From Axinella damicornis (lineage: Eukaryota > Porifera > Demospongiae > Axinellida > Axinellidae), in contig OZ007510.1 in the NCBI GenBank assembly GCA_963931865.1, forward strand, positions 13,354,471-13,418,470: a stretch of DNA of 64,000 nucleotides, in the 5' to 3' direction. Both the position numbers and the translations under genes were made by a program. Shown here one piece after another: positions 1 to 59,000 of this stretch. Within the stretch, counting starts at the first letter, position 1; each line of letters opens with the position of its first letter. Under the pieces are notes generated by a model. The model was given only the letters and a program-made list of their open reading frames with translations. It did not search any database and had not been told where the DNA came from.

Positions 1-1828
1 CCCTAACCCTAACCCTAACCCTAACCCTAACCCTAACCCTAACCCTAACCCTAACCCTAACCCTAACCCTAACCCTAACCCTAACCCTAACCCTAACCCT
101 AACCCTAACCCTAACCCTAACCCTAACCCTAACCCTAACCCTAACCCTAACCCTAACCCTAACCCTAACCCTAACCCTAACCCTAACCCTAACCCTAACC
201 CTAACCCTAACCCTAACCCTAACCCTAACCCTAACCCTAACCCTAACCCTAACCCTAACCCTAACCCTAACCCTAACCCTAACCCTAACCCTAACCCTAA
301 CCCTAACCCTAACCCTAACCCTAACCCTAACCCTAACCCTAACCCTAACCCTAACCCTAACCCTAACCCTAACCCTAACCCTAACCCTAACCCTAACCCT
401 AACCCTAACCCTAACCCTAACCCTAACCCTAACCCTAACCCTAACCCTAACCCTAACCCTAACCCTAACCCTAACCCTAACCCTAACCCTAACCCTAACC
501 CTAACCCTAACCCTAACCCTAACCCTAACCCTAACCCTAACCCTAACCCTAACCCTAACCCTAACCCTAACCCTAACCCTAACCCTAACCCTAACCCTAA
601 CCCTAACCCTAACCCTAACCCTAACCCTAACCCTAACCCTAACCCTAACCCTAACCCTAACCCTAACCCTAACCCTAACCCTAACCCTAACCCTAACCCT
701 AACCCTAACCCTAACCCTAACCCTAACCCTAACCCTAACCCTAACCCTAACCCTAACCCTAACCCTAACCCTAACCCTAACCCTAACCCTAACCCTAACC
801 CTAACCCTAACCCTAACCCTAACCCTAACCCTAACCCTAACCCTAACCCTAACCCTAACCCTAACCCTAACCCTAACCCTAACCCTAACCCTAACCCTAA
901 CCCTAACCCTAACCCTAACCCTAACCCTAACCCTAACCCTAACCCTAACCCTAACCCTAACCCTAACCCTAACCCTAACCCTAACCCTAACCCTAACCCT
1001 AACCCTAACCCTAACCCTAACCCTAACCCTAACCCTAACCCTAACCCTAACCCTAACCCTAACCCTAACCCTAACCCTAACCCTAACCCTAACCCTAACC
1101 CTAACCCTAACCCTAACCCTAACCCTAACCCTAACCCTAACCCTAACCCTAACCCTAACCCTAACCCTAACCCTAACCCTAACCCTAACCCTAACCCTAA
1201 CCCTAACCCTAACCCTAACCCTAACCCTAACCCTAACCCTAACCCTAACCCTAACCCTAACCCTAACCCTAACCCTAACCCTAACCCTAACCCTAACCCT
1301 AACCCTAACCCTAACCCTAACCCTAACCCTAACCCTAACCCTAACCCTAACCCTAACCCTAACCCTAACCCTAACCCTAACCCTAACCCTAACCCTAACC
1401 CTAACCCTAACCCTAACCCTAACCCTAACCCTAACCCTAACCCTAACCCTAACCCTAACCCTAACCCTAACCCTAACCCTAACCCTAACCCTAACCCTAA
1501 CCCTAACCCTAACCCTAACCCTAACCCTAACCCTAACCCTAACCCTAACCCTAACCCTAACCCTAACCCTAACCCTAACCCTAACCCTAACCCTAACCCT
1601 AACCCTAACCCTAACCCTAACCCTAACCCTAACCCTAACCCTAACCCTAACCCTAACCCTAACCCTAACCCTAACCCTAACCCTAACCCTAACCCTAACC
1701 CTAACCCTAACCCTAACCCTAACCCTAACCCTAACCCTAACCCTAACCCTAACCCTAACCCTAACCCTAACCCTAACCCTAACCCTAACCCTAACCCTAA
1801 CCCTAACCCTAACCCTAACCCTAACCCT
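1..1828. repeat. Telomeric repeat (CCCTAA)n, chromosome end
   Basis: An uninterrupted run of CCCTAA hexamers, about 304 copies, with no variant noticed by eye. The C-rich strand reads 5'->3' from the window start, so base 1 lies toward the chromosome tip and the window runs centromere-ward. TTAGGG is the usual animal telomere repeat. The last hexamers merge into the 32-bp repeat through a CCCTAG variant. Confidence 0.98.
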
Positions 1829-2457
1829 AGCAAACCTAAAAATAACTTAAAGCTAACCCTAGCAAACCTAAAAATAACTTAAAGCTAACCCTAGCAAACC
1901 TAAAAATAACTTAAAGCTAACCCTAGCAAACCTAAAAATAACTTAAAGCTAACCCTAGCAAACCTAAAAATAACTTAAAGCTAACCCTAGCAAACCTAAA
2001 AATAACTTAAAGCTAACCCTAGCAAACCTAAAAATAACTTAAAGCTAACCCTAGCAAACCTAAAAATAACTTAAAGCTAACCCTAGCAAACCTAAAAATA
2101 ACTTAAAGCTAACCCTAGCAAACCTAAAAATAACTTAAAGCTAACCCTAGCAAACCTAAAAATAACTTAAAGCTAACCCTAGCAAACCTAAAAATAACTT
2201 AAAGCTAACCCTAGCAAACCTAAAAATAACTTAAAGCTAACCCTAGCAAACCTAAAAATAACTTAAAGCTAACCCTAGCAAACCTAAAAATAACTTAAAG
2301 CTAACCCTAGCAAACCTAAAAATAACTTAAAGCTAACCCTAGCAAACCTAAAAATAACTTAAAGCTAACCCTAGCAAACCTAAAAATAACTTAAAGCTAA
2401 CCCTAGCAAACCTAAAAATAACTTAAAGCTAACCCTAGCAAACCTAAAAATAACTTT
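1825..2457. repeat. 32-bp telomere-associated tandem repeat
   Basis: About 19.8 near-identical head-to-tail copies of a 32-bp unit. The unit begins CCCTAGCAAACCTAAAAA, continues through TAACTTAAAG and closes on CTAA, so each junction recreates a telomere-like GCTAACCCTAG. Copies start at 1825, 1857 and every 32 bp to 2433; the last one decays at about 2455. The array shares its first hexamer with the telomere, which suggests it arose by amplification of a degenerate telomere edge. Confidence 0.95.
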
Positions 2458-5700: not shown

Positions 5701-8700
5701 AGACCGTCGATGCATCCAGGGATCGATGGCGATTGCAGTATCCCTGGATGGCTATCGTTTTCATCCCGAGATGGCTCTTGGGATGGCGATCGCCGCATCC
5801 CTGGATGGCGATCGATGCATCCAGGGACGGTGACCGATGAATCCCGGGATGACGATCGACGCAGCCCGGGACGGCCTTCGATGCATCCGTGGATGGCGAT
5901 CGTTACACCACTGGATGGCGTCGCAGCATCCCGGGATGGCGATCGATGCATCCCGCGTTGGCGATCGATGCATCCCGGGATGGCGATCATCGATCCCAGG
6001 ATGGTTACCATTGCATCCCGGGATGGAGATCTCGAGATGGCAAGCGATGCATCCCGGGATGGCGATCGATGCATCCCGGGATGGTGATCATTGCATCCAG
6101 GGATGGAGATCTCGAGATGACCGTCGATGCATCCAGGGATCGATAGCGATTGCAGTATCCCTGGATGGCTATCGTTTTCATCCCGGGATGGCTCTTGGGA
6201 TGGCGATCGCCGCATCCCTGGATGGCGATCGATGCATCCCGGGATGGTGACCGATGAATCCCAGGATGACGATCGACGCAGCCCGGGACGGCCTTCGATG
6301 CATCCGTGGATGGCGATCGTTACACCACTGGATGGCGTCGCAGCATCCCGGGATGGCGATCGATGCATCCCGGGTTGGCGATCGATGCATCCCGGGATGG
6401 CGATCATGGATCCCAGGATGGTTGCCATTGCATCCCGGGATGGAGATCTCGAGATGGCAAGCGATGCATCCCGGGATGGCGATCGATGCATCCCGGGATG
6501 GTGATCATTGCATCTTGTGATGAAGATCTCGAGATGATCAACGATGCATCCCGGGATGGCGATCGCAGTATCCCTGGTTGACTATCGTTTTCATCCCGGG
6601 ATGGCTTCCTTGGATGGCGATCCCAGCATCCCTGGATGGCGATCGACGCATCCCGAGATGGTAATCGATGAATTCCGGGATGGCGATCGATGCATCCCGG
6701 AATGGCGATCGATGCATCCGTTGATGGCGATCGATACACCATTGGATGGCGTCGCAGTATCCCTGAATGGCGATCGATTAGTCCCGGGATTGTGATAATG
6801 TATCCCGGGATGACTTTCATTGCATCCAGGGATGGAGATTGATGAATCTCGAGATGACGATCGATGCATCCCAGGATGGCGATCGCAGTTTCCCTGGATG
6901 GCTATCGATGCATCCCGGGATGGCTTCTTGGGAAGGCGTTCGTAGCATCCCTGGATGGCGATCGATGCATCCGGGATGGTGATCGATGCATCCGGTGGTG
7001 GCGAACGATACACGACGGGATGGCGTCGCAGCATCCCTGTTTGGCCATCGATGCATCTCGAGATAGTAATCATCTATCCCGAGATGGCTATCATTACATC
7101 TCGGGATGGAGATCGATGCATCTCGGGATGGCTATCTATGCACCCGGGATGACAATCACAGCATCCCTGGATGGCGATCGTGTCATCCGAGATGGCGATC
7201 GATGCATCCCGGGATTGCGATCCATGCATCCGTGGGTGGCGATCGATACACGACTGGATGGCGTCGCAGCATCCCGGGATGGCGATTGATGCATCCCGGG
7301 ATGGCGATCGATGCAACCTGGGATGGCGATCGATGCATCCCGGGATGGCGATCATAGATCCCAGGATGGTTACCATTGCATCCCAGGAGGGAGATCTCGA
7401 GATGGCGATCGATGCATCCCGGGATGGCGATCAATGCATTCCGGGATGGTGATCGATGAATCCCGGGATGGCGATCGATGCATTCCGGGATGGCGATCGA
7501 TACATCCCAGGATGGCGATCGATGCATCCCGGGATGGTGATCATTGCATCCTGTGGTGGAGATCTCGAGATGACCATCGATGCATCCCGGGATAGCGATC
7601 GCAGTATCCCTGGATGGCTATCGTTTTCATCCGGGATGGCTTCTTGAGATGGCGTTCACAGCATCCCTGGATGGTGATCATGCATCCCACGATGGTTACC
7701 ATTGCATCCCGGAGTGGAGATCTCGAGATGGCAATCGATGCATCCCGGGATGGCGATCGATGCATCTCGGGATGGTGATCATTGCATCCCGTGATGGAGA
7801 TCTCGAGAAGACCATCGATGCATCCCGGGATGGCAATCGCAGTATCCCTGGATGGCTATCGTTTTCATCTCGGGATAGCTTCTTGGGATGGCGATCGCAG
7901 CATCCCTGGATGGCGATCGATGAATCCCGGGATGGTGAAATATGAATCCCGGGATGACAATCGATGCATCCCGGGATGGCGATCGATGCATCAGTGAATG
8001 GCGATCGTTACACCTCTGGATGGCGTCGCAGCATCCCGGGATGGCGATCGATGCATCCCGGGATTGGGTTCGATGCATCCCGGGATGGCGATCGATACAT
8101 CCCGGGATGGTGATCATTGCATCCCGGGATGGAGATCTCCAGATGGCGATCAATGCATCCCAGGATGGCGATCGATGCATCCCGGGATGGTGATCATGCA
8201 TCCCACGATGGTTACCATTGCATCCCGGGATGGAGATCTCGAGATGGCGATCGATGCATCCCGGGATGCCAATCGATGCATCCCGGGATGGCAATCATTG
8301 CATCCCGTGCTGGAGATCTCGGGATGACCATCGATGCATCCCAGGATGGCGATCGCAGTATCCCTGGATGGCTATAGTTTTCATCCCGGGATGGCTTCCT
8401 TGTATGGCGATCGCAGCATCCCTGGATGGCGATCAATGCATTCCGGGGATGGTGATCGATGAACCCCGGGATGGCAATCGATGCATCCCGGGATGGTGAT
8501 CGATGCATCCCGGGATGGTGATCATTGCATCCCGTGATGGAGATCTCGAGAAGACCATCGATGCATCCCGGGATGGCGATCGCAGTATCCCTGGATGGCT
8601 ATCGTTTTCATCCGGGATGGCTTCTTGGGATGGCGATCGCAGCTTCCCTCTATGGCGATCGATGCATCCCGGATTGTGATCGATGAATCCCGGGATGGCG

Positions 8701-9750
8701 ATCGATGCATCCCGGGATGGTGATCGATACATCCCGGGATGGCGATCGATGCATCCCGGGATGGTGATCATTGCATCCCGTGATGGAGATCACGAGATGA
8801 CCATCGATGCATCCCGAGATGGCGATCGCAGTATCCCTGGATGGCTATCGTCTTCATCCCGGGATGGCTTCTTGGGATGGCGAACGCAGCATCCCTGGAT
8901 GGCGATTGATGCATCCCGGGATGGTGACCGATGAATCCCGGGATGGCGATCGATGCATCGGTGGATAGCGATCGTTACACCACTGGATGTCGACGCAGCA
9001 TCCCGATCGATGCATCCCGGGATGTTGATCGATGCATCCTGGGATGGCGATCATGGATCCCAGGATGGTTACCATTGCATCCCGGGATGGAGATCTCGAG
9101 ATGACGATCGATGCATCCCGGGATGGCGATCGATGCATCTCGGGATGGCGATCATGGATCCCAGGATGGTTACCATTGCATCCCGTGATGGAGATCTTGA
9201 GATGACCATCGATGCATCTCAGGATGGCGATCGCAGTATCCCTGGATGGCTATAGTTCTCATCCCGGGATGGCTTCTTTGGATGGCGATCGCAGCATCCC
9301 TGGATGGCGATCAATGCATTCCGGGTTGGTGATCGATGAATCTCGGGATGGCGATCGATGCATCCCGGGATGGTGATCATGCATCCCAGGATGGTTACCA
9401 TTGCATCCCGGGATGGGGATCTCGAGATGGTGATCGATGCATCCCGAGATGGCGATCGATGCATCCCGGGATGGCGATCGATGCATCCTGGGATGGCGAC
9501 CATTGCATCCCGTGATGGAGATCTCGAGATGACCATCGATGAATCCCAGGATGGCGATCGCAGTATCCCTGGATGGCTATAGTTTTCATCCCGGGATGGT
9601 TTCTTGGGATGGCGATCGCAGCATCCCTGGATGGCGATCAATGCATTCCGGGATGGTGATCGATGAATCCCGGGATGGCGATCGATGCATCCCGGGATGG
9701 CGATCGATACATCCCAGGATGGCGATCGATGCATCCCGGGATGGTGATCA
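2704..9750. repeat. satA: 22-bp palindrome-rich satellite
   Basis: Tandem repeat with a 22-bp period whose common core is GATGGCGATCGATGCATCCC followed by GG. Nearly every part of the unit is a palindrome: CGATCG, ATCGAT, ATGCAT and ATCCCGGGAT. Variants insert AGATCTCGAG (GATGGAGATCTCGAGATG) at roughly regular spacing, giving higher-order units; a block at about 5761-5973 recurs at 6178-6390 (417 bp later, about 19 units). Open frames here are by-products of the repeat; 22 bp is not a codon multiple, so peptides repeat every 66 bp. The array ends abruptly at the (TTA)n tail of the retrotransposon. Confidence 0.95.
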
Positions 9751-43600: not shown

Positions 43601-44297
43601 CGGAGACACTGTACTCAGACGCGGAGACACAGTACTCAGACACGGAGACACAGTACTCAGACGCAAAGGACAGTACTCAGACGCAAAGGACAGTACTCAG
43701 ACGCGGAGACACAGTACTCAGACGCGGAGACAAAGTACTCTGACGCGCAGACCCGATACTCAGACGCGGAGACACGGTCCTCAGACGCGTAGACACGGTA
43801 CTCAGACGCGGAGACACGGTACTCAGACGCGGAGACACGGTACTCAGACGCGGAGACACGGTACTCAGACGCGGAGACACGGTACTCAGACGCGGAGACA
43901 CGGTACTCAGACGCGGAGACACGGTACTCAGACACGGAGACACGGTACTCAGACGCGGAGACACGGTACTCAGACGCGGAGACACGGTACTCAGACGCGG
44001 AGACACAGTACTCAGACGCGGAGACACCGTACTCAGACGCGGAGACACAGTACTCAGACGCGGAGACACAGTACTCAGACGCGGAGACACCGTACTCAGA
44101 CGCGGAGACACAGTACTCAGACGCGGAGACACAGTACTAAGACGCGGAGACTCAGTACTCAGACGCGGAGACACAGTACTCACACGCGGAGACACAGCAC
44201 TCAGACGCAAAGGACAGTACTCAGACGCAAAGGACAGTACTCAGACGCGGAGACACTGTACTCAGACGCGGAGATAAAGTACTCTGACGCGCAGACA
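34618..44297. repeat. satC: 21-bp satellite, distal block
   Basis: Tandem repeat with a 21-bp period, core CAGACGCGGAGACACAGTAC. Orientation flips at 35654/35655 around TACTGTGTACACAGTA, so 34618-35654 is inverted against the rest. Units near the flip are of an ACTGAG subtype (ACACTGAGACACAG); from about 36050 onward ACGCGGAG dominates. Long higher-order copies occur: about 1.7 kb from 40410 recurs 2001 bp later. Shorter 19-bp units (GGAGACAGT) shift frame locally. Because 21 bp is seven codons, several frames stay open for hundreds of residues; these are not treated as genes. The last six bases (CAGACA, 44292-44297) are one copy of the target duplication of the 8.8-kb transposon. Confidence 0.95.
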
Positions 44298-44345
44298 TAT
44301 GGTGGCCGATAGGGGAAACCCGAAGCGGGCGCCCGACGCCCGATA
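44298..44345 (+). repeat. Left terminal inverted repeat (48 bp)
   Basis: Begins TATGGTGGCCGATAGGGG and ends in GACGCCCGATA, with an internal GGGCGCCC palindrome. Exact inverse of 53041-53088 and of the internal end 51890-51937; matched by 52053-52111 apart from an 11-bp insertion. Confidence 0.95.
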
Positions 44346-44978
44346 CCCGATGTATGTCGGCCAGTACCCGATGTATGTCGGCCAGTACCCGATGTATGTC
44401 GGCCAGTACCCGATGTATGTCGGCCAGTACCCGATGCATGTCGGCCTGTACCCGATGTATGTCGGCCAGTACCCGAACCGTGTCGGCTGTACCCGAACCA
44501 TGTCGGCCAGTACCCGATGCATGTCGGCTGTATCTATGGCTGTACCCGAACCATGTCGGCCAGTACCCGATGTATGTCGGCCAGTACCCGATGTATGTCG
44601 GCCAGTACCCGATGCATGTCGGCCAGTACCCGATGTATGTCGGCCAGTACCCGAACCGTGTCGGCTGTACCCGAACCATGTCGGCCAGTACCCGATGCAT
44701 GTCGGCTGTATCTATGGCTGTACCCGAACCATGTCGGCCAGTACCCGATGTATGTCGGCCAGTACCCGATGTATGTCGGCCAGTACCCGATGTATGTCGG
44801 CCAGTACCCGATGCATGTCGGCCAGTACCCGAACCGTGTCGGCTGTACCCGAACCATGTCGGCCAGTACCCGATGTATGTCGGCCAGTACCCGATGCATG
44901 TCGGCCAGTACCCGAACCGTGTCGGCTGTACCCGAACCATGTCGGCCAGTACCCGATGTATGTCGGCCAGTACCCGAA
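44346..44978 (+). repeat. satD array, left arm (about 30 units of 21 bp)
   Basis: Tandem 21-bp repeat, GTCGGCCAGTACCCGA followed by a variable pentamer (TGTAT, TGCAT, ACCAT, ACCGT). A longer unit (two GTCGGCTGTATCTATGGC copies, 44526 and 44701) shows a 175-180-bp higher-order period. It lies just inside the left terminus and recurs inverted inside the right terminus, the position expected of transposase-binding subterminal repeats (inference). Confidence 0.9.
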
Positions 44979-45142
44979 TTGTCAGCCGGCTGGCGCACTG
45001 CGCCAGCTAAATGTGGTTTTCGAGATTGCTACATGTGCTAGCTAGCTAGCTAGCTAGCTGAAGCGATTATGGATCCAACGTCACAGGACGGTAACGATGT
45101 AACGCTAAGGCTATAGCGTTGTGTCTGTTAACTACTGCCAGG
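44979..45142 (+). promoter_or_regulatory. Left-arm unique sequence upstream of integrase gene
   Basis: Unique DNA from TTGTCAGCCGGCTGGCGCAC through a (GCTA)n run at 45041-45059 to the integrase ATG at 45143. Its first part, to the GCTA run, is kept in the deletion derivative (52368-52426). It probably holds the integrase promoter; no TATA box is evident. An in-frame stop at 45092-45094, with no intervening ATG, supports the chosen start. Confidence 0.5.
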
Positions 45143-47053
45143 ATGTATTCACGTTGTATAGCACTCCTTGTGAAGTACTTCTACTCGTGGAGACGTTACA
45201 AAGACATAGTGGCCAGATTGAGCTACATCAATGGGCTTCAGAGAAGGTATATGTAAGATTCACTACTGTTCAGGATTAGTTGTGTGACCTTTAGTGATAC
45301 CTGGTGGCGTATTATATCACACACACAATGTACACTTTGTTTGATTAGTGTCCGCTGGTTAAAGAAACAGTACAAACGCCTGGGACTGAAGCGAAGGAAC
45401 TGCCGTCCTCCTGATGGCACACTACGGCTAATAATTCGAGTATGTTGTGAAGGTTTAGTATGGTGATGCATGGTATGACCTGTGTGTGTACAGAGTATGC
45501 ATGATTGATACAATACCCACATTAATTGGTTGCATTACAGCACCTTATTGAAACTTCTGATGGTCTCCGTGGATACCGGGCTATATGGAAGATCATAAGA
45601 GACCGATACCGTATTATTGCTCCCAGGTATATCGTGCATGTCCAATGATTGGACTGCTCTTAAATAGATTGCTTACCATTTTAAGGGATAAGATCATGAC
45701 TATTATGAGGGAAGTTGACCCTGAAAGAGTTTCTCGAAGGCGTCAAAGGCGATTGAAAAGAAGAGTGTACCAGAGCAAGGTGAGGAATTTATCATGTATA
45801 ATTATACTGCACATGCCAGGTTATGATTGTTGCATTCTAATTGAATCTGCAGGGACCAAATTTTATTTGGCATGCTGATGGATATGACAAGTTAGCCCCA
45901 TATGGAATGAGAATTCATGGCTGCATTGATGGGTATAAAACTAAAACACATGATGAGCATATATGCATGCTTCTAGTATGTAAGTTTTCTCCACTGTAGA
46001 TACTCCAGAAAGATTCTGTGGATGAAATTAGCCTCTACCAATCATGACCCAGCTGTTGTTGTTGGTTACTTCCTTGACACCGTGGCACAGCTAGGAGGTA
46101 TGCCATGCATACACCTGAGAAATGTATTCAAGTCACAATCATGAATTAATTATTGCAGGTTGTCCTACCATACTGCGCTGTGACTATGGCACTGAGAACA
46201 CCCATCTAGCCACTGTGCAGATTGCCTTCAGGCTAGAGCATGGTGATCGTTTGTCGAGAGATAAAAGTTTCATGTATGGTCCATCAACTGGCAACATAGT
46301 AAGTTATTAGGTTACAAACTTGACATTCATCAGTGGGTTAAAGACTGAAACTGACCTTTTCATTTGTTTCAGCGAATTGAGGCTTGGTGGTCTCAGTTTC
46401 GTCGTCATAAAAGTGAATGGTGGATTGATTTATTCAAGGTGTATAGCTATAAGTTCCATTTTCTTTTGACTCGGTTGACTTTTTAGTCATTTTCATTGTG
46501 GTTGCTAAATAATAGGGATTACAGATTGAGAGGTGGTTTGACCGCGACAACCAGCTACACAGGTACACTAACTGTGTATACTTAAATTCTATTCAAAGAT
46601 TATTTTTAAAAGTGTGACATCATTGATTTAGGTGGGCACTTGCATACGTGATGGTACCTCTGCTGACAAAGGAAATAAATGAGTTTGTTGAACACTGGAA
46701 TTCACACCATATTCGACCAAGCACATATGCCATCTGTCCTGGTGGGGTGCCTGAGGATCTGTTCGACATGCCAGAACACTATGGTATGTTGCTTTATAAA
46801 TGATTTGTATACAATAATCAGAGGATTTCTTGCAGGTGCTGAGGATTACCTGAAATCTGTGGATGGACAACTATGGGTTCAAGCTGTGATCGATAAATCG
46901 CAACCACCTCCACCGTTCTACTGTGTCGAGTTCAAGGATTGGGCAGATGCTGTATATGCAGACATGGGTTTAACACAAGCAAATGTTACACCATATAACT
47001 GCCGAGCAATTTACATTAAATTGATCCATTACATGTATCTTTGCAACTTGTAA
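45143..47053 (+). CDS. DD40E integrase-core transposase, 11 exons
   Basis: Eleven exons: 45143-45246, 45349-45439, 45541-45626, 45686-45779, 45853-45932, 46000-46097, 46159-46298, 46373-46438, 46516-46562, 46632-46784, 46837-47053. All introns are GT-AG, 52-102 nt; phases close to 391 codons plus TAA. Residues about 24-52 ([20 protein letters not shown]) look like a helix-turn-helix. The integrase core follows: WHADGYDKL (Asp134), RCDYGTEN (Asp193), RIEAWWSQ (Glu234), giving a DD40E triad with all three residues present. Similar cores (WHxDGYDKL...IHGxIDG) are known in animal integrase-core proteins of transposon origin. It sits inside the left terminus of the transposon pointing inward, so it is the likely transposase that cuts and joins the ends. 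GTAAGC at 47050 could be a further donor, giving an alternative C-terminus. Intact. Confidence 0.85.
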
Positions 47054-47265
47054 GCACTGAACATCGTTATTATTATCGTTAACACTTCACAGCATAATTA
47101 CATATTTCCGACATACAATCATGTATGGGGGAGTGGTGATGAAGCAATGAGAACTGAAGTATAGGCATAAAACTAACTGTTGAATAATATAGGAAACCAG
47201 CAGCTGAAAGATGCTTGTCCATATGTGAGCATAGCTATGCAGATATAGACGTAGAAAATCTCCAG
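47054..47265. other. Gap between convergent genes
   Basis: 212 bp between the integrase stop and the last kinase codon, presumably both 3' UTRs. No further coding signal apart from a possible extra integrase exon after CACTTCACAG at about 47082-47091. Confidence 0.6.
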
Positions 47266-50200
47266 TTAAAAGTTAGTTTCGTTCCACATTTGCAAGACCT
47301 ATTGTGAAAGAGGACTGTGATCATGACTTAACCCTTTAACCACCGAATTCTTCCCACCAAGACAACACATTTTCATGCATTCAGCGCACACCACTTTCGT
47401 AGGTACTCCTCTCCCACAGCATTCGCTCCTCAGCGGCCAAACTTGGTGGGGCCCGCACACATGGAGAGACCTCTCTGGCAATACCGTTAATGATATTCAT
47501 GACCCCCCACAAGCCCAGCAATCAGAGGTCAAAGGTGGATGTCAGCCGGATTTTCGCCCAGCATTTCCCTAAACTTGGGCCAGATCTGACTGATGGCACA
47601 CCTTACACCACCAATTTGCAGGTTTTCTTGAGGCCCTGGGTGGGGTCTATGAATATCATTAGAATCAAAAATTCTCGGGTCAATGAATCTCATTAAAATC
47701 AAAAGACGCCAACGACAGCCCGAAGGGGGGGCTGCCGCCCCCCCCTTCGAAACCCCCCCGCTTGTACGTTTAGTGGGGGAGGCGCGCCGAAATCTGACCA
47801 AATTTTTGAGTTCGTGCCTTAAAGTCGTCCCTAGGCCCTCTGAAGACTTTTTGGTCTCTTTTTGGACTGGCGAGAAGCCCTACAAGTGCATAGGGTCTAA
47901 ATGACGCATTTATGCGTCAATAGGGCTTAAAGGGTTAATCAGATTTGTGGTTTACATGTATCGACCTTACCTGAGCACTCGTTGGACGCTTGCTAAACTT
48001 GGTGATAGCACTTGTGATCACTCTGAGAAAAATCAATAGGAGGTATGGGGGAATTTCTTCAGCTCTGCGGTCCTTCATTGTTGCAAAGATGGATGCGGAC
48101 CCAAACTTGTCTTCCATGTGCTCTGTCTGTAATGCAGAATGAACCATGCATGGAGAACATAATATTATGCCAAGAATTTATATTACAAAAACTTACAAGC
48201 TTCCTGTCTTGTCTTTCTGCAGAATACGCTTTAAGACCGGTAAAGCACTCCAAGGCAACCTAATTAAATGGCAGCCACATAAAACTGTATGCAGAACAAA
48301 TCCATAATATTTACTTACCACTCCATAAGAATACACATCAGCTTTTGGAGAGATCTGCCCATGTGCCACTTCTGGAGCATAATAGCCCTCAGTTCTGGCA
48401 AATGCAGGTGCTGTTACAACAGTGCGACCCAGCTTGCACTCCGGGATTTGGTAGGCAAAACCGAAATCTCCCAACTTGGCATTCAGGTGATTATCAAGCA
48501 GGATGTTTGCTCTGCAAAAATACACTTGTAGTAAAGGTACTTGTGTAGCTACATGATGAGGCACATGCCATGTACTTACGACTTGATGTCTTGGTGTATC
48601 AGGGGTGGGGTGTTTTGGTGCAGCCAGGACAAGCCTCTGCACGAGTCCTTCAGGATCTTTCCCCTCTGGTTCCAGGTCAGTGGTTGCCGCTTCTGCAGTT
48701 AATGAACGTAGCTAGTGTATACAATGCTTCGATGCATGGTGTTGTGTTTAACTTACACATACCTTGTCATGAATGTGCTCTTTTAAACTGCCTTGCTCCA
48801 TATACTCAAAGAGCAGCATCGGCGGACTAACACAATATCCCATGAGGTCTACCACATTCTTGTGCCTGTACCTGAACATTCCGGCAATCATATATACATG
48901 CATTGTCACATAGAATGATGAAGCATACATAAATATTTACTTTGTCAAGGCAGTGATTTCAGACTTGAGCTGCACTGCACCTTCCTATAAGTGCAAAATG
49001 CATGCATGTTGACTGCAAGGCAATAGCTAACCGTTGCTAGCACATATTAACTTACCTCGGTCAACACTTTGATAGCAGCTTTGGTACCCCTAATGAGACC
49101 CCAGTACACTCTCCCAAATCCACCTTCCCCAATGACATGGTTGAGTGAGAAGTCTCCAGTAGACCGTTTCAGTTCACTGATGTCAAACTCAAGCACAGGG
49201 GTGACATCTGAATGTCAATGCATGCATGCAAATGCACTAATATTATGTGTGAGCAGGCATGCATTCATTGCTTCAACATCAAGGTAAATAAATACCTTGG
49301 CTGCTAAAGCCTTGCACTTGCAGAGACAATGGTGAACTCTCCTTTCTTGCAGATGTACTTGTAGGAAGCAACTGTGGCCTAGTGCTGGTCGAAGTGATAT
49401 TGGGCATGTCTGTGTGTTAAAAATCAATAATTACTTTTTGATGTGTTTAGTTTCCTGAGACAAAACATGCCTTCAGAACATAGTAGAAGTGGGAGATCAG
49501 GACCTTTGAAAGAAAATTAAGGAACCTCAATTTCACAATACTCATAATATTTACAACTAATATTCTTACTTGGTGTCACTTCCAATACCATTACCGCTGA
49601 ACAAATACTCTCTTCTCCACTCGTGATCCTGCACTGGTACAGCCCAACCTCATCAACATAAACCACAGGGGCCGAGGGGAAATGGGATACGGTACCCAGC
49701 TTCTCCCACTCGTAGGTTGAAATTGGATGATGTGACGAGACACACAACAGTGTCACAGACTGCTGAAGGCTGACTACATTTATGGCCGTCTTGCTCTGGT
49801 AAAGTATACTCAGTCCAGCTGTGAAGTGATAAGATTTAATGACAGTAGCTGATCAACACACAGTCCGAAAGCATACACCTCACCTTCTTCAGCTGTGATC
49901 ACTGCAACTGTTGACCGCGAATCTTCACGGAATGGAGCCATCAGTATTTCTCCCCCTGTTAATTCGACAGATGTTATGAGGGTTATGACAAATATTTGCT
50001 TCTTACTTACCTACTTCCACATAGCATACAGCATAGCCTTCTGATTCTGGCTGAAATGGACCCATTGCTTTCAACTGCCGCCCTCCCTTGCACCAAACTT
50101 CCTCTCTGGTTAACTGATTACGTCCCTCAAATTCCCTTGTTCCAGCAGTAGACACAGGAAGATACTTCACTACAACTGTTAACCCTTGAAAAAAAATTCA

Positions 50201-51428
50201 AGATTCAAGTTAAGTACAATACTATTAGCTGAGGCCTGCATACCCTTCTTTGGAGGAGCACTGGCACCCTTCAATTCCGTTGCAGTTCTCCTTGCTGCAT
50301 GCAGAAAAATATCTCCAATAGCCGGATGCAAATAGTCACGCTAATAGAATAATAGCAACTAGTGTTCATACACAGGTATGCTTTCTTCTGCTGTGAGGGC
50401 AGGGCTGAACCAATTCCAGAGTCCTTAGGCACAATAGATTGTGTGCCCCTGTCACCATTATCAGTCTATATACAAGAAACCAACAATCATTCAAATCAAT
50501 GAATATGCAAGAAGAAACCAATTCAAATTATGAATGAACATGCATGCACATTTGACACTCACTTCAGATAAGTCACTAGAATCCGATTGTGGCTCCTTTT
50601 CTGTCACCATTCCTACTCCTATTTTTACACGTGATGGAGACTTCTTCAGAAGTAGCTGCAAGTAGTTTCCTAGGGACCATGGCCTCTTGAAGCCCCCAGT
50701 ACCCGGAATGTCATCACTGCAAATGATCGCCCCATTCATCTTGAATAACTTCAACACCACGGTTTCCCCTACATCTCCTGCAGCTGGCAGCAGCTTTGTT
50801 GCACTGGCGGCTTTTTCAGCCAGTGACTGATAGCTGGCCCCTCGCTCCACAGCTATCTCAAGGTAAGTGGAATGGCGGACAAACAGTCCTGCATTCGTTC
50901 TTCTCATGGCACACACGGTGATCTGCATGCATGAATAATAAAGATGAGCTGGCCACACTTTATAATCCTATAATAATTGTACATGCACATGGCACCTCTT
51001 TCCAACTAAGAACATGCCCATACTGTAATAAGGTCATCCTTAGTAGACCTGTGCCCACGCCCACGATCCTTAGGCCTGCGCCCAGCTGCAGGAGAGCACT
51101 GGCTGGAGACTACAGGGGGATTCTTCAGAGCTTTGCTAAGCTTTGCAGCTTTTTGAAACAATTCTGTTGGTCAATTAAACAAATATAACGTTACACGCAC
51201 GGAGTTATGGCATAACCATTGTAAAAACGTACCGCGTGAACGTTTGCTTGATGATGCGGCTGCAGTCGCTTCTGGGTTCTTTTCCCTGGGACGCGAACTT
51301 CTTTGTGGGGGTGGTGGGGATGGCGAGCTGCTCTCACGCTCAGACTCCTCCTCATTTGCAAGCTTCAGGATATCATCTGCCTTGCTGCGAAGACTTTGAG
51401 AGAGTTTTATCAGCTTTCTCTTGGCCAT
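47266..51428 (-). CDS. Pelle/IRAK-like protein kinase with Ig-like domain, 18 exons
   Basis: Exons, 5' to 3': 51428-51233, 51163-51024, 50922-50563, 50465-50372, 50294-50244, 50184-50011, 49955-49884, 49818-49570, 49503-49471, 49409-49296, 49207-49056, 48984-48941, 48871-48763, 48692-48580, 48511-48319, 48259-48197, 48126-47971, 47298-47266. They total 2346 nt: 781 codons plus TAA. Introns are 55-101 nt, except the last (672 nt, holding a transposon); one uses a GC donor (49470). Residues 1-112 are basic and low-complexity. 113-232 is an unrecognised globular unit. 363-445 is Ig-like (Cys388, Trp400, Cys425 in GLYQC). The kinase spans about 505-775: GEGGFGRV, Lys541 in AAIK, HQDIKSANILL (Asp631), DFG 649-651, APE, and RPT near the end. 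All catalytic residues are present. No signal peptide, transmembrane segment or death domain seen, so probably an intracellular Ser/Thr kinase; substrate unknown. The gene lies wholly inside the transposon. Confidence 0.85.
47332..47934. mobile_element. TTAA-flanked TIR element (family 1, copy B) in last kinase intron
   Basis: TTAA at 47328-47331 and 47935-47938; ends CCCTTTAACC and GGGCTTAAAGGG, with a TGACGCAT-TTATGCGTCA hairpin near the right end. Near-identical inverse of 19118-19719. Removing it with one TTAA leaves a 65-nt intron, matching the other introns, so the insertion is confined to the intron and need not disrupt the kinase protein. Confidence 0.9.
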
Positions 51429-51521
51429 GGCTGCGCCGCACTATTGCTAAATAAAACACGTGGCTACTAGTATAATGACCATGCGGCCAATGACGTCATG
51501 TTAGCGTGGACCGAAAGGTTC
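51429..51521 (-). promoter_or_regulatory. Kinase 5' flank with CRE, CCAAT and E-box motifs
   Basis: Immediately upstream of the kinase ATG (minus strand). Holds CACGTG at 51457-51462, CCAAT at 51487-51491, and the palindromic CRE-like TGACGTCA at 51491-51498, all within 75 bp of the ATG. It lies between the gene and the right satD array. The same segment is repeated at 52431-52524. Promoter function is inferred from position and motif density. Confidence 0.55.
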
Positions 51522-51892
51522 GACATGGTTCGGGTACTGCCGACATACATCGGGTACTGGCCGACATGCATCGGGTACTGGCCGACATGCATCGGGTACT
51601 GGCCGACATACATCGGGTACTGGCCGACATGCATCGGGTACTGGCCGACATGCATCGGGTACTGGCCGACATGCATCGGGTACTGGCCGACATACATCGG
51701 GTACTGGCCGACATGCATCGGGTACTGGCCGACATGCATCGGGTACTGGCCGACATGCATCGGGTACTGGCCGACATGCATCGGGTACTGGCCGACATGC
51801 ATCGGGTACTGGCCGACATACATCGGGTACTGGCCGACATACATCGGGTACTGGCCGACATACATCGGGTACTGGCCGACATACATCGGGTA
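51522..51892 (-). repeat. satD array, inner right arm (about 17 units)
   Basis: 21-bp satD repeat in inverse orientation (CATCGGGTACTGGCCGACAT), ending at the internal terminus 51890-51937. Units here are almost uniform, with only TACAT/TGCAT alternation, unlike the mixed units of the left arm. Confidence 0.9.
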
Positions 51893-51937
51893 TCGGGCGT
51901 CGGGCGCCCGCTTCGGGTTTCCCCTATCGGCCACCAT
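51890..51937 (-). repeat. Internal copy of the transposon terminus (right-facing)
   Basis: Inverse of the left TIR, ending CCCCTATCGGCCACCATA at 51937. With 44298 it would delimit a complete 7.6-kb element, but the flanks here (CTGGTC) do not match CAGACA. Confidence 0.9.
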
Positions 51938-52052
51938 ACTGGTCTGCTAAATCTTTCTGGAAACCTAGGCCATAGATAATATAGCTATACTATCTATGCC
52001 TAGCCTAGGCGCAACGCCATAGCTTAGGCCATGGCGCCAGCGCATACGTGCG
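51938..52052. other. 115-bp palindromic spacer between internal termini
   Basis: Unique DNA between the two inward copies of the terminus. It has its own dyad: CCTAGGCCATAGATA and TATCTATGCCTAGCCTAGG around ATATAGCTATAC, then GCCATAGCTTAGGCCATGGC. It may be former target DNA between two neighbouring insertions. Confidence 0.6.
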
Positions 52053-52111
52053 TATGGTGGCCGATAGGGGATTCTAAGGGGAAACCCGAAGCGGGCGCCC
52101 GACGCCCGATA

Positions 52112-52367
52112 CCCGATGCATGTCGGCCAGTACCCGATGTATGTCGGCCAGTACCCGATGCATGTCGGCCAGTACGCGAACCATGTCGGCAAGTACCCGA
52201 ACCTTGTCGCCGGTACCCGACCCATGTCGGCCAGTACCCGAACCATGTCGGCCAGTACCCGAACCGTGTCGGCTGTACCCGAACCGTGTCGGCCAGTACC
52301 CGAACCTTGTCGGCAAGTACCCGAACCTTGTCGGCAGTACCCGAACCATGTCGGCCAGTACCCGAAT
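52112..52367 (+). repeat. satD array, left arm of the derivative (about 12 units)
   Basis: 21-bp satD units, mostly the ACCAT/ACCGT/ACCTT subtypes, with some 20-bp units (GTCGGCAGTACC). They are more heterogeneous than in the inner right arm. Confidence 0.9.
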
Positions 52368-52426
52368 TGTCAGCCGGCTGGCGCACTGCGCCTGTGGTTT
52401 TCGAGATTGCTACATGTGCTAGCTAG

Positions 52427-52524
52427 CCATGGCTGCGCCGCACTATTGCTAAATAAAACACGTGGCTACTAGTATAATGACCATGCGGCCAATGACGTCA
52501 TGTTAGCGTGGACCAAAAGGTTCG
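52427..52524 (-). promoter_or_regulatory. Second copy of the kinase 5' flank
   Basis: Matches 51424-51521 almost base for base, offset by 1002-1003 bp, including CACGTG, CCAAT and TGACGTCA (52493-52500). After ATGGC it continues into the GCTA run instead of the kinase, so it drives no recognisable gene. Confidence 0.8.
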
Positions 52525-53040
52525 GGTGCTACCGACAAGGTTCGGGTACTGCCGACATGGTTCGCCCCGACATGGTTCGGGTACTGCCGACATGGTTCGG
52601 GTACTGGCCGACAAGGGTCGGGTACTGGCCGACACGGTTCGGGTATAGCCGACAAGGTTCGGGTACTGCCGACATGGTTCGGGTACTGGCCCCGGGTACT
52701 GCCGACATGGTTCGGGTACTGGCCGACATGGTTCGGGTACCGGCGACAAGGTTCGGGTACTGGCCGACATGCATTGGGTACTGGCCGACATGCATCGGGT
52801 ACTGGCCGACATGCATCGGGTACTGGCCGACATGCATCGGGTACTGGCCGACATGGTTCGGGTATAGCCGACAAGGTTCGGGTACTGCCGACATGGTTCG
52901 GGTACTGGCCCCCGGGTACTGCCGACATGGTTCGGGTACTGGCCGACATGGTTCGGGTACCGGCGACAAGGTTCGGGTACTGGCCGACATGCATTGGGTA
53001 CTGGCCGACATGCATCGGGTACTGGCTGACATGCATCGGG
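52525..53040 (-). repeat. satD array, outer right arm (about 24 units)
   Basis: Inverse satD units of mixed subtype, with truncated units (GTACTGGCCCCGGGTACTGCC near 52684 and again near 52905). A roughly 220-bp block is repeated (52680-52790 resembles 52895-53010). Adjoins the outer right TIR. Confidence 0.9.
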
Positions 53041-53088
53041 TATCGGGCGTCGGGCGCCCGCTTCGGGTTTCCCCTATCGGCCACCATA
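53041..53088 (-). repeat. Right terminal inverted repeat (48 bp)
   Basis: Exact inverse of 44298-44345, ending CGGCCACCATA, immediately followed by the CAGACA duplication at 53089-53094. Confidence 0.95.
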
Positions 53089-56000
53089 CAGACACGATAC
53101 TCAGACGCGGAGACACAGTCCTCAGACGCGTAGACACGGTACTCAGACGCGGAGACACGGTACTCAGACGCGGAGACACGGTACTCAGACGCGGAGACAC
53201 GGTACTCAGACGCGGAGACACGGTACTCAGACGCGGAGACACGGTACTCAGACGCGGAGACACGGTACTCAGACACGGAGACACGGTACTCAGACGCGGA
53301 GACACGGTACTCAGACGCGGAGACACGGTACTCAGACGCGGAGACACGGTACTCAGACGCGGAGACACCGTACTCAGACGCGGAGACAAGGTACTCAGAC
53401 GCGGAGACACAGTACTAAGACGCGGAGACTCAGTACTCAGACGCGGAGACACAGTACTCAGACGCGGAGACACAGTACTCAGACGCGGAGACACAGTACT
53501 CAGAAGCGGAGACACAATACCCAGAGCGGAGAAAAAGTACTCAGACGCGGAGACACAGTACTCAGACGCGGAGACACAGTACTCAGACGCGGAAACACAG
53601 GACTCAGACGCGGAGACACAGTACTCAGACGCGGAGACACGGAACTCAGACGCTGAGACACAGTAATTAGACGCGGAGACACAGTACTCAGACGCGGAGA
53701 CACAGTACTCAGACGCGGAAACACAGTACTCAGACACGGAGACACAGTACTCAGACGCGGAGACACAGTACTAAAACGCGGAGACACAGTACTCAGACGC
53801 GGAGACACAGTACTCAGACGCAAAGGACAGTACTCACACGCGGAGACAGTACTCAGACGCAAAGATAAAGTACTCTGACGCGCAGACACGATACTCAGAC
53901 GCGGAGACACGGTCCTCAGACGCGTAGACACGGTACTCAGACGCGGAGACACGGTACTCAGACGCGGAGACACGGTACTCAGACGCGGAGACACGGTACT
54001 CAGACGCGGAGACACGGTACTCAGACGCGGAGACACGGTACTCAGACGCGGAGACACGGTACTCAGACACGGAGACACGGTACTCAGACGCGGAGACACG
54101 GTACTCAGACGCGGAGACACCGTACTCAGACGCGGAGACACAGTACTCAGACGCGGAGACACCGTACTCAGACGCGGAGACACAGTACTCAGACGCAAAG
54201 ACACAGTACTAAGACGCGGAGACTCAGTACTCAGACGCGGAGACACAGTACTCAGACGCGGAGACACAGTACTCAGACGCGGAGACACAGTACTCAGAAG
54301 CGGAGACACAATACCCAGAGCGGAGACACAGTACTCAGACGCGGAGACACAGTACTCAGACGCGGAGACACAGTACTCAGACGCGGAAACACAGGACTCA
54401 GACGCGGAGACACAGTACTCAGACGCGGAGACACGGAACTCAGACGCTGAGACACAGTAATTAGACGCGGAGACACAGTACTCAGACGCGGAGACACAGT
54501 ACTCAGACGCGGAGACACAGTACTCAGACACGGAGACACAGTACTCAGACGCGGAGACACAGTACTAAAACGCGGAGACACAGTACTCAGACGCGGAGAC
54601 ACAGTACTCAGACGCGGAGGCACAGTACTCAGACGCGGAGACACTGTACTCAGACGCAAAGACACAGTACTCAGACGCGGAGACACAGTACTCAGACCAA
54701 AAGGACAGTACTCAGACGCAAAGGACAGTACTCAGACGCGGAGACACAGTACTCAGACGCGGAGACAAAGTACTCTGACGCGCAGACACAATACTCAGAC
54801 GCGGAGACACAGTACTCAGACGCGGAGACAAAGTTCTCTGACGCGCAGACACGGTACTCAGACGCGGAGACACGGTCTTCAAACGCGTAGACAACGTACT
54901 CAGACGCGGAGACAGTACTCAGACGCGGAAACACAGTACTCAGACGCGGAGACACGGTACTCAGACGCGGAGACACGGTACTCAGACGCGGAGACACAGT
55001 ACTCAGACGCGGAGACACAGTACTCAGACGCGGAGACACAGTACTCAGAAGCGGAGACACAATACCCAGAGCGGAGACACAGTACTCAGACGCGGAGACA
55101 CAGTACTCAGACGCGGAGACACAGTACTCAGACGCGGAAACACAGGACTCAGACGCGGAGACACAGTACTCAGACGCGGAGACACGGAACTCAGACGCTG
55201 AGACACAGTAATTAGACGCGGAGACACAGTACTCAGACGCGGAGACACAGTACTCAGACGCGGAGACACAGTACTCAGACACGGAGACACAGTACTCAGA
55301 CGCGGAGACACAGTACTAAAACGCGGAGACACAGTACTCAGACGCGGAGACACAGTACTCAGACGCTGAGGCACAGTACTCAGACGCGGAGACACTGTAC
55401 TCAGACGCAAAGACACAGTACTCAGACGCGGAGACACAGTACTTAGACGCAAAGGACAGTACTCAGACGCAAAGGACAGTACTCAGACGCGGAGACACAG
55501 TACTCAGACGCGGAGACAAAGTACTCTGACGCGCAGACACGGTACTCAGACGCGGAGACACAGTACTCAGACGCGGAGACAAAGTTCTCTGACGCGCAGA
55601 CACGGTACTCAGACGCGGAGACACGGTCCTCAAACGCGTAGACACGGTACTCAGACGCGGAAACAGTACTCAGACGCGGAGACACAGTACTCAGACGCGG
55701 AGACACGGTACTCAGACGCGGAGACACGGTACTCAGACGCGGAGATACGGTACTCAGGCGCGGAGACACGGTAATCAGACGCGGAGACACGGTACTCAGA
55801 CGCGGAGACACGGTACTCAGACGCGGAGACACGGTACTCAGACGCGGAGACACAGTACTCAGACGCGGAGACACGGTACTCAGACGCGGAGACACAGTAT
55901 TCAGACGTGGAGACACGGTACTCATACGCGGAGACACGGTACTCAAACGCGGAGACACAGTACTCAGACGCGGAGACAAAGTACTCTGACGCGCAGACCC

Positions 56001-59000
56001 GATACTCAGACGCGGAGACACGGTCCTCAGACGCGTAGACACGGTACTCAGACGCGGAGACACGGTACTCAGACGCGGAGACACGGTACTTTGACGCGGA
56101 GACACGGTACTCAGACGCGGAGACACGGTACTCAGACGCGGAGACACGGTACTCAGACGCGGAGACACGGTACTCAGACACGGAGACACGGTACTCAGAC
56201 GTGGAGACACGGTACTCAGACGCGGAGACACGGTACTCAGACGCGGAGACACGGTACTCAGACGCGGAGACACCGTACTCAGACGCGGAGACACAGTACT
56301 CAGACGCCGAGACACAGTACTAAGACGCGGAGACTCAGTACTCAGACGCGGAGACACAGTACTCACACGCGGAGACACAGTACTCAGACGCGGAGACACA
56401 GTACTCAGACGCGGAGACACCGTCCTCTGACGCGGAGACACAGTACTCAGACGCGGAGGCACAGTACTCAGACGCGGAGACACTGTACTCAGACGCGGAG
56501 ACAAAGTACTCTGACGCGCAGACACGATACTCAGACGCGGAGACACGGTCCTCAGACGCGTAGACACGGTACTAAGACGCGGAGACACGGTACTCAGACG
56601 CGGAGACACGGTACTGAGACGCGGAGACACGGTACTCAGACGCGGAGACACCGTACTCAGACGCGGAGACACAGTACTCAGACGCGGAGACACAGTACTA
56701 AGACGCGGAGACTCAGTACTCAGACGCGGAGACACAGTACTCAGACGCGGAGACACAGTACTCAGACGCGAAGACACAGTACTCAGAAGCGGAGACACAA
56801 TACCCAGAGCGGAGAAAAAGTACTCAGACGCGGAGACACAGTACTCAGACGCGGAGACACAGTACTCAGACGCGGAAACACAGGACTCAGACGCGGAGAC
56901 ACAGTACTCAGACGCGGAGACACGGAACTCAGACGCTGAGACACAGTAATTAGACGCGGAGACACAGTACTCAGACGCGGAGACACAGTACTCAGACGCG
57001 GAAACACAGTACTCAGACACGGAGACACAGTACTCAGACGCGGAGACACAGTACTAAAACGCGGAGACACAGTACTCAGACGCGGAGACACAGTACTCAG
57101 ACGCAAAGGACAGTACTCACACGCGGAGACACAGTACTCAGACGCGGAGATAAAGTACTCTGACGCGCAGACACGATACTCAGACGCGGAGACACGGTCC
57201 TCAGACGCGTAGACACGGTACTCAGACGCGGAGACACGGTACTCAGACGCAAAGACACGGTACTCAGACGCGGAAACACGGTACTCAGACGCGGAGACAC
57301 GGTACTCAGACGCGGAGACACGGTACTCAGACGCGGAGACACGGTACTCAGACACGGAGATACGGTACTCAGACGCGGAGACACGGTACTCAGACGCGGA
57401 GACAGGGTACTCAGACGCGGAGACACGGTACTCAGACGCGGAGACACGGTACTCAGAAGCGGAGACAGTACTCAGACGCGGAGACACAGTACTCAGACGC
57501 GGAGACACAGTACTCAGACGCGGAGACACAGTACTCAGACACGGAGACACAGTACTCAGACGCGGAGACACAGCACTCATACGCGGAGACACAGTACTCA
57601 GACGCAAAGACACAGTACTCAGATGCGGAGACACGGTACTCAAACGCGGAGACACGGTACTCAGATGCGGAGACACGGTACTCAGACGCGGAGACACGGT
57701 ACTCACACGCGGAGACACGGTACTCAGACGCGGAGACACAGTACTCAGACGCGGAGACACAGTATTGAGACGCGGAGACACAGTACTCAGACGCGGAGAC
57801 ACAGTACTCAGATGCGGAGACACAGTACTCAGACGCGGAGACACGGTACTCAAACGCGGAGACACGGTACTCAGACGCGGAGACAAGGTACTCAGACGCG
57901 GAGACCCGGTAATCAGACGCGGAGACACGGTACTCAGACGCGGAGACACGGTACTCAGAAGCGGAGACAGTACTCAGACGTGGAGACACAGTACTCAGAC
58001 GCGGAGACACAGTACTCAGACGCGGAGACACAGTACTCAGATGCGGAGACACAGTACTCAAACGCGGAGACACAGTACTCAGACGCGGAGACACAGTACT
58101 CATACGCGGAGACACGGTACTCAGACGCGGACACACAGTAATCAGATGCGGAGACACCGTACTCAGACGCGGTGACTCAGTACTCAGACACAGTACTCAG
58201 ACGCGGCTACACAGTACTCAGACGCAGAGACACAGTACTCAGACGCGGAGACACAGTACTCAAACGCGGAGACACAGTACTCAGACGCGGAATCACAGTA
58301 CTCAGACGCGAAGACACAGTACTCAGACGCGGAGACACAGTACTCAGACGCGGAGACACAGTACGGAGACGCGGAGACACAGTACTCAGACGCGGAAACA
58401 CGGTACTCAGACGCGGAGACACGGTACTCAGACGCGGAGACACGGTACTCAGACGCAAAGACACGGTACTCAGACGCGGAGACACGGTACTCAGACGTGG
58501 AGACACAATACTCAGACGCGGAGACACGGTACTCAGACGCGGAGACACGGTACTCAGACACGGAGACACGGTACTCAGACGCGGAGACACGGTACTCAGA
58601 CGTGGAGACACGGAACTGAGACGCGAAGACACGGTACTCAGACACGGAGACACGGTACTCAGAAGCGGAGACAGTACTCAGACGCGGAGACACAGTACTC
58701 AGACGCGGAGACACAGTACTCAGACACGGAGACACAGTACTCAGACGCGGATACACAGTACTCAGACGCGGAGACACGGTACTCAAACGCGGAGACACGG
58801 TACTCAGATGCGGAGACACGGTACTCAGACGCGGAGACACGGTACTCACACGCGGAGACACGGTACTCAGACGCGGAGACACAGTACTCAGACGCGAAGA
58901 CACAGTATTGAGACGCGGAGACACAGTACTCAGACGCGGAGAAACAGTACTCAGACGCGGAGACACAGTACTCAGACGCGGAGACACGGTACTCAAACGC

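What the first reader, a model, noticed from the sequence alone, without database searches (positions are those of the whole stretch)
44292..53094. An 8.8-kb TIR transposon carrying its own intron-rich integrase and a full protein kinase gene
Identical 48-bp inverted ends, a 6-bp CAGACA duplication, and an undisturbed satC target sequence elsewhere in the window show directly that this block inserted as one unit. Inside, an apparently intact DD40E integrase and an apparently intact 781-codon kinase face each other. Animal DNA transposons normally carry little beyond transposition genes, so a Pelle/IRAK-like kinase with an Ig-like domain as resident cargo would be unusual. It could serve the element or be a captured host gene.
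Basis: partly seen in the sequence, partly recalled or inferred. Interest (0 to 1): 0.92.

Follow-up and report, generated by a model that had tools for sequence, protein, structure and literature searches.

The report
Sponge transposon with resident kinase gene
A jumping DNA element in what is likely a sponge genome carries, facing the gene for its own predicted integrase, a protein-kinase gene that recurs at the same facing position in related elements, so the kinase is likely a standing part of this kind of element and not stray cargo.

Summary
The block 44298-53088 is flanked by CAGACA and its empty 40-bp target occurs intact three times in the window: it entered satC as one unit. It is a composite: transposon A (44298-51938; 7,641 bp; 149-bp exact inverted ends), a 114-bp unique spacer, and B (52053-53088), a 1-kb deletion derivative. 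A holds a 407-aa HTH+DD40E integrase (PF24764) and a convergent 770-aa kinase (predicted ubiquitin-like domain, weak Ig match, protein kinase). TATGG..CCATA ends, 6-bp duplications and the transposase type fit IS3EU/GingerRoot. Two other copies with exact duplications keep the starts of both genes. A separate family (C4, 8,706 bp, 171-bp perfect ends, TGACTT) carries both genes convergent at 56% and 52% identity. Of 20 chosen integrase loci, 8 of 13 exon-rich ones (four families) have a convergent kinase; 0 of 7 single-frame ones do. So the kinase is likely an old resident, not a recent capture. Fungal IS3EU elements are reported with an alpha-kinase opposite the transposase; here another kinase superfamily sits there. 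Its function is untested; recent copies show no purifying selection, and some related elements lack it.

The parts
44292..44297 (.). left copy of the 6-bp target site duplication CAGACA
44298..51938 (.). element A, 7,641 bp, IS3EU/GingerRoot-like transposon with two convergent genes
   Evidence: deletion derivatives L012 and L013 with own duplications
44298..44446 (+). left terminal inverted repeat of A (149 bp exact)
44344..44977 (+). left subterminal array of about 21-bp repeats (predicted transposase binding region)
45069..47053 (+). integrase/transposase gene, 12 exons, 407 aa, HTH_21-like + rva_4, DD40E
47266..51428 (-). kinase gene, 17 exons, 770 aa, convergent with the integrase
50563..50922 (-). 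kinase exon 3: predicted ubiquitin-like (beta-grasp) domain
49570..49818 (-). kinase exon 8: Ig-like region, sub-threshold
47971..49207 (-). kinase catalytic domain exons (10-16); K, HQD, DFG and APE motifs present
47328..47938 (.). high-copy TTAA-ended insert inside the last kinase intron
51521..51892 (-). right subterminal array of 21-bp repeats, inverted relative to the left
51790..51938 (-). right terminal inverted repeat of A
51939..52052 (.). 114-bp spacer between A and B; one match in the assembly, itself
52053..53088 (.). element B, 1,036-bp deletion derivative: A's left end (to 45046) joined to A's right end (from 51424)
53089..53094 (.). right copy of the duplication CAGACA
53869..53908 (+). 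one of three exact copies of the empty target site (others at 56505, 57154)

Best explanation
Element A carries an integrase gene and, facing it inside one pair of inverted ends, a protein-kinase gene that recurs in related elements and is likely a resident accessory gene of this IS3EU/GingerRoot-type lineage, predicted to help the element by acting on host or transposase proteins. Shown by sequence: A lies inside 149-bp inverted ends; A plus spacer plus B inserted as one block with a 6-bp duplication; a sister family holds the same convergent pair, and two deletion derivatives of A hold the starts of both genes. Inferred: the DD40E integrase binds the inverted ends and subterminal repeats and moves the DNA by cut and paste; the block moved because the outermost ends of A and B were used together; the kinase is made from the opposite strand as a kinase with a ubiquitin-like head. 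My commitment on function is that it phosphorylates host signalling or repair proteins (or the transposase) so as to favour element spread; no call tests this step.
For: Outer duplication and three exact empty sites. 39 termini genome-wide, control 0; 8 of 14 copies with both ends have exact 6-bp duplications. L012 (GCATAG) and L013 (GAATGC) join A's left end and integrase start to the kinase 5' part; L019 has kinase exon 1. Sister element L029: 171-bp perfect ends, TGACTT on both sides, integrase + and kinase - convergent, with matches to the N-terminal domain, Ig region and kinase; identity to A 135/241 for integrase, 96/185 for kinase. Kinase profile at E<1e-3: 8 of 13 exon-rich integrase loci (four families), each convergent, against 0 of 7 single-frame integrase loci and 0 of 28 other loci, mostly short. 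A, L029 and two proteins of other samples (Dysidea avara P0125; P0121) form one kinase clade, support 0.995; the integrases of A, L029 and Dysidea group at 0.90. Catalytic motifs kept in A and largely in L029.
Against: Kinase codons of L012, L013 and L019 differ from A by 10, 9 and 4 non-synonymous against 0, 4 and 0 synonymous changes (7, 7 and 2 non-synonymous once those at deletion junctions or misaligned ends are left out): no purifying selection in the recent family. The kinase domain is single-copy at DNA level. The other copy with a long integrase, L011, lacks the kinase. 5 of 13 exon-rich loci show no kinase, among them L030 with its own 92-bp inverted ends. The kinases fall into at least three lineages, and L034's kinase groups with L033/L036 while its integrase does not, so one unbroken line of descent is not shown for all. 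No transcript of A itself was available.
Confidence: 0.72

Rival explanations
1. Recent capture: a Pelle/IRAK-like host gene was transduplicated into one element, as in Pack-type elements, and rides as cargo.
For: Kinase domain resembles IRAK and plant Pelle-type kinases; intron-rich; kinase domain single-copy at DNA level; L011 lacks it.
Against: Sister family L029 has the three-part kinase in the same place and direction at 52% identity; the Dysidea homologue is full length; a derivative with 90% identical sequence keeps kinase exon 1 (L019); no separate gene with the whole N-terminal architecture among the 25 exon hits, only five domain-alone matches.
Confidence: 0.1
2. Resident but idle passenger: the kinase lies in the lineage for long but no longer matters to the element and drifts.
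For: Non-synonymous excess among recent copies; families and copies without the kinase; L039-L041 kinases lack a normal HxD motif.
Against: Open 17-exon frame with catalytic motifs in A; repeated pairing and orientation in several families; fungal IS3EU elements also pair transposase with a kinase gene (PMC12730594).
Confidence: 0.22
3. Chance neighbours: the ends belong to separate insertions and the kinase is host DNA caught between them.
For: Four ends in the block, and the inner flanks do not match.
Against: Outer duplication and exact empty sites; L012 and L013 hold both ends of A with integrase and kinase starts at other sites with their own duplications; L029.
Confidence: 0.02

Closest known systems
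IS3EU/GingerRoot superfamily (PMC10045372: outline, introduction and section 3.3 seen)
   Same: 6-bp duplications, TA..TA ends (TAYGG..CCRTA in fungal members, PMC12730594 passages), long inverted repeats, integrase-like DDE transposase without an HHCC motif
   Different: the passages I saw do not describe an animal element with a eukaryotic-type kinase gene
Fungal TET+ IS3EU elements (PMC12730594, passages seen)
   Same: transposase and a kinase gene in opposite orientations inside one element
   Different: there an alpha-kinase, with a TET/JBP gene between the two; here a Pkinase-family (Pelle/IRAK-like) protein with a predicted ubiquitin-like head and no third gene between
Styx element of Zymoseptoria (PMC10853768, passages seen)
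   Same: described as likely derived from an IS3EU element encoding two proteins
   Different: the second protein is not described as a kinase in the passages seen
TBE elements of Oxytricha (PMC4724952, passages seen)
   Same: [quoted passage not shown] reported under purifying selection
   Different: Tc1/mariner transposase, ciliate germline, 3-bp target

Membership tests
IS3EU/GingerRoot | 6-bp target site duplication | tested here: met
   CAGACA for the block; 8 of 14 copies with both ends exact, six not; TGACTT in L029
IS3EU/GingerRoot | termini TA..TA, in fungal members TAYGG..CCRTA | tested here: met
   TATGG..CCATA; sister L029 has TG..CA, reported as occasional for GingerRoot (PMC10045372)
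IS3EU/GingerRoot | DDE integrase-like transposase with an N-terminal region lacking HHCC | tested here: met
   rva_4 PF24764, weak HTH_21, D150/D209/E250; no zinc-binding integrase family among the five listed; triad invariant in the 14 proteins aligned
IS3EU/GingerRoot | transposase falls in the IS3EU/GingerRoot clade of a reference tree | not testable with these tools
   Repbase transposases are not held; the superfamily is assigned from ends, duplication length and domain
Fungal TET+ IS3EU subgroup | kinase gene opposite in orientation to the transposase | tested here: met
   integrase + 45069-47053, kinase - 51428-47266
Fungal TET+ IS3EU subgroup | the kinase is an alpha-kinase | tested here: not met
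   Pfam hits are Pkinase and PK_Tyr_Ser-Thr; no alpha-kinase family listed at E<=1
Fungal TET+ IS3EU subgroup | TET/JBP gene between the two genes | tested here: not met
   only 212 bp lie between the two gene models; no TET/JBP profile was run
Ginger1 | HHCC zinc-binding N-terminal domain (PMC10045372) | tested here: not met
   no such family among the five listed for the integrase
Pack-type captured host gene | close non-element parent gene in the same genome | tested here: inconclusive
   N-terminal protein search found no full parent but five domain-alone matches; the kinase domain alone was not searched genome-wide at protein level

The most novel reading that the evidence does not exclude
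IS3EU elements are two-part machines across kingdoms: a transposase faces a second gene whose protein has a small ubiquitin-like head and an exchangeable signalling enzyme (Pelle-like kinases here, HECT-like ligases in single-frame sponge elements, alpha-kinase in fungi), and that enzyme rewires the host's response so that the element can move.
Probability: 0.3. Interest if true: 0.88.

Novelty: new variant of a known kind. Interest (0 to 1): 0.7.

Why it matters
Animal DNA transposons are usually treated as carrying little beyond a transposase. Here one genome holds several diverged families that keep a signalling kinase facing the integrase, in the slot where fungal relatives are reported to keep an unrelated alpha-kinase. 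If the pairing serves transposition, mobile elements repeatedly recruit kinases to manage their hosts, and some kinase genes annotated in sponge genomes would really be transposon genes. The question is directly testable by adding or removing the kinase in a transposition assay.

Tried and rejected
Rejected: a single 8.8-kb simple element (inner ends). Rejected: other cargo captures by this family. The 10.3-kb two-ended stretch on C3 (L009/L010) holds a RecQ-helicase-like gene, but it reads as a different inserted element with its own inverted ends, and the outer flanks do not match (gene labels by eye). L011's PHD-finger-like fragment and 20-bp satellite sit within its left repeats and its flanks do not match (label by eye); I could not tell insertion from capture.

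Literature: ten listings were seen, titles and abstract starts only; apart from PMC12730594 and the TBE paper I saw no kinase-bearing DNA transposon named there. The GingerRoot paper is not held.

Rows dropped: L032 and L040 from the kinase tree; L032 and rows with under 200 columns from the integrase tree; 12 comparison kinases chosen from the 120 listed. From the count of 14 copies I left out L009/L010, L014, L015, L019, L025 and the window; L009/L010 was shown apart (no match), L015 inner too (5 of 6 letters).
Full report
What was checked. The block at 44292-53094 is flanked by CAGACA on both sides, and the 40-bp site made by joining the flanks with one CAGACA occurs exactly at 53869, 56505 and 57154, with 14 sites at up to one mismatch. 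The insertion of the whole block into the 21-bp satellite as one unit is therefore direct. The window maps to C6:13354471-13418470 of an unnamed 226-Mb, 120-contig assembly. The top integrase relative is from the sponge Dysidea avara (51% identity). The Dysidea kinase P0125 is the named hit with the highest identity and coverage in the list (47% over 99%), although three plant kinases have lower E-values. A sponge is therefore likely.

Anatomy. The block holds four copies of the terminus: at 44298 (>), 51938 (<), 52053 (>) and 53088 (<). Element A (44298-51938, 7,641 bp) has ends identical over 149 bp. Then come a 114-bp spacer with no second match in the assembly and element B (52053-53088, 1,036 bp). 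B is A's left end up to about 45046 joined to A's right end from about 51424, next to the kinase start codon, at 85-88% identity, so it is a deletion derivative of this family. Only the outermost 6-bp flanks match. The simplest reading, which is inferred, is that A and B lay 114 bp apart elsewhere and moved together by the outer ends. Arrays of about 21-bp repeats lie inside both ends in inverted orientation.

Copies of the same family. 39 termini with up to 3 mismatches exist, and 0 for the control. Of 14 fetched copies with both ends, 8 have exact 6-bp duplications; the other six have 5, 4, 3, 2, 1 and 1 matching letters. L012 and L013 keep A's left end with the integrase start and the kinase 5' part (50457-51940 and 50073-51661), each with its own exact duplication; L019 keeps kinase exon 1. 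L011 keeps an integrase at 96% DNA identity, broken by a stop and frameshifts, and has no kinase. The kinase region 47960-50072 is found only in A at DNA level.

Related families. The integrase protein gave 114 exon-level matches in the genome. I chose 20 loci from that list by eye: 13 that match exon by exon and 7 that match as one open frame; many single-frame matches were not fetched. A kinase profile (built from the 120 proteins listed plus A) at E<1e-3 finds a kinase in 8 of 13 exon-rich loci (L029, L032, L033, L034, L036, L039, L040, L041), each convergent with the integrase, and in 0 of 7 single-frame loci and 0 of 28 other loci. The eight loci are four families, not eight independent cases: L032, L033 and L036 have like kinases, and so do L039, L040 and L041. 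Fisher p for 8/13 against 0/7 is 0.015, with that caveat. L030, L031, L035, L037 and L038 show no kinase; L030 has its own 92-bp inverted ends, so a TIR-bounded relative without a kinase exists.

The decisive relative is L029 (C4:16200500-16210400). It has 171-bp perfect inverted ends (530-700 and 9065-9235), TGACTT on both sides, its own inverted 24-bp subterminal repeats, an integrase (+) and a convergent kinase (-) with matches to the N-terminal domain, Ig region and catalytic domain. Identity to A is 135/241 for the integrase and 96/185 for the kinase. Two other places hold L029-like sequence of the kinase 5' part only, at 88% and 95%, as with A's derivatives. L034 also has about 120-bp imperfect inverted ends round both genes, without a matching duplication. 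A, L029, P0121 and P0125 form one kinase clade (support 0.995); L033, L034 and L036 form another (0.99); L039 and L041 a third (1.0). The integrases of A, L029 and Dysidea group at 0.90, but L034's integrase does not group with those of L033 and L036. So the slot is old, and its kinase has been exchanged or has diverged strongly.

A shared head. The motif W[ST][LI][GE]x[YF] of the ubiquitin-like domain occurs 5 times in the open frames of the 20 loci against a shuffled mean of 0.8 (maximum 4 in 50). Four of the five lie upstream of a kinase on its strand (L029, L033, L034, L036); the fifth is L035, without a kinase found. The profile itself is significant in the 20 loci only for L029, which helped build it, so this is a lead. 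Two further genomic matches, L049 and L050, carry the domain (E 8e-10 and 2e-15) without a kinase in the 5 kb read.

Another partner. In two single-frame elements with intact ends and duplications (L042, 8,208 bp, TCAGCT; L043, 7,571 bp, CCCACC, the outer of two solutions) the convergent second gene resembles HECT ligases. For one L043 frame, 15 of the 16 PDB rows at E<=10 are HECT proteins, best E 0.0039; Pfam HECT reaches only E 0.076, and for the L042 frames no HECT match was listed, so there the likeness is by eye. This is suggestive only.

Selection. Kinase codons of L012, L013 and L019 differ from A by 10, 9 and 4 non-synonymous and 0, 4 and 0 synonymous changes, with in-frame indels and no stops; 7, 7 and 2 non-synonymous remain without those at junctions or misaligned ends. 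This gives no sign of purifying selection in the recent family. The long-term evidence is the kept catalytic motifs: A has K, HQD, DFG and APE; L029 has K, HQD and DFG; the L039-L041 group lacks a normal HxD.

Placement. Published features of IS3EU/GingerRoot are 6-bp duplications, TA..TA ends and no HHCC (PMC10045372, introduction and section 3.3 seen). Fungal TET+ IS3EU elements of rusts end TAYGG..CCRTA, and TET+ IS3EU families contain transposase and alpha-kinase genes in opposite orientations (PMC12730594, passages seen). A meets the first set. It shares the opposed kinase with the second but not the kinase type. I did not place the transposase in a Repbase-based tree.

Verdict. It is best called an IS3EU-type element, moved as a composite with a deletion derivative, whose kinase is likely a long-standing resident gene. 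What the kinase does remains inference.

Noticed in passing
window 1-1829 (C6:13354471 on, contig length 15688314): A 1.8-kb perfect CCCTAA telomere-type array lies inside a contig, over 2 Mb from its nearer end, next to long satellites.
   Followed up: no
L042 4386-5423 and 6607-7200; L043 4440-5498 and 7191-7730: Single-frame IS3EU-like elements carry a convergent second gene; a L043 frame is weakly HECT-like.
   Followed up: partly
L009/L010 (C3:9246897-9257185): A RecQ-helicase-like gene with ubiquitin-like and B-box-like stretches lies in what reads as a separate inserted element with inverted ends (labels by eye).
   Followed up: partly
L011 290-2866: PHD-finger-like gene fragment and a 20-bp satellite inside the left repeats of a copy with a broken integrase (label by eye).
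   Followed up: no
L014 / L045 (C4:4490500-4507100): A lone left terminus stands next to a gene stretch that looks like a death domain (by eye); a NACHT match (E 9.8e-09) lies near the other end of L045, and a single-frame integrase stands about 1.4 kb from the terminus.
   Followed up: no
window 47328-47938: TTAA-ended 0.61-kb insert with 42 near-identical matches in a capped list; likely a recently active non-autonomous element.
   Followed up: no
L015 (C8:5471900-5475200): One copy inserted into the left terminus of another; flanks GAAACC and GTAACC.
   Followed up: yes
L049, L050: Ubiquitin-like head domain without a kinase within 5 kb; L049 has an equal-scoring partner place on C7.
   Followed up: partly
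L029 about 8000-9000: Possible third small gene between the kinase start and the right end (by eye).
   Followed up: no
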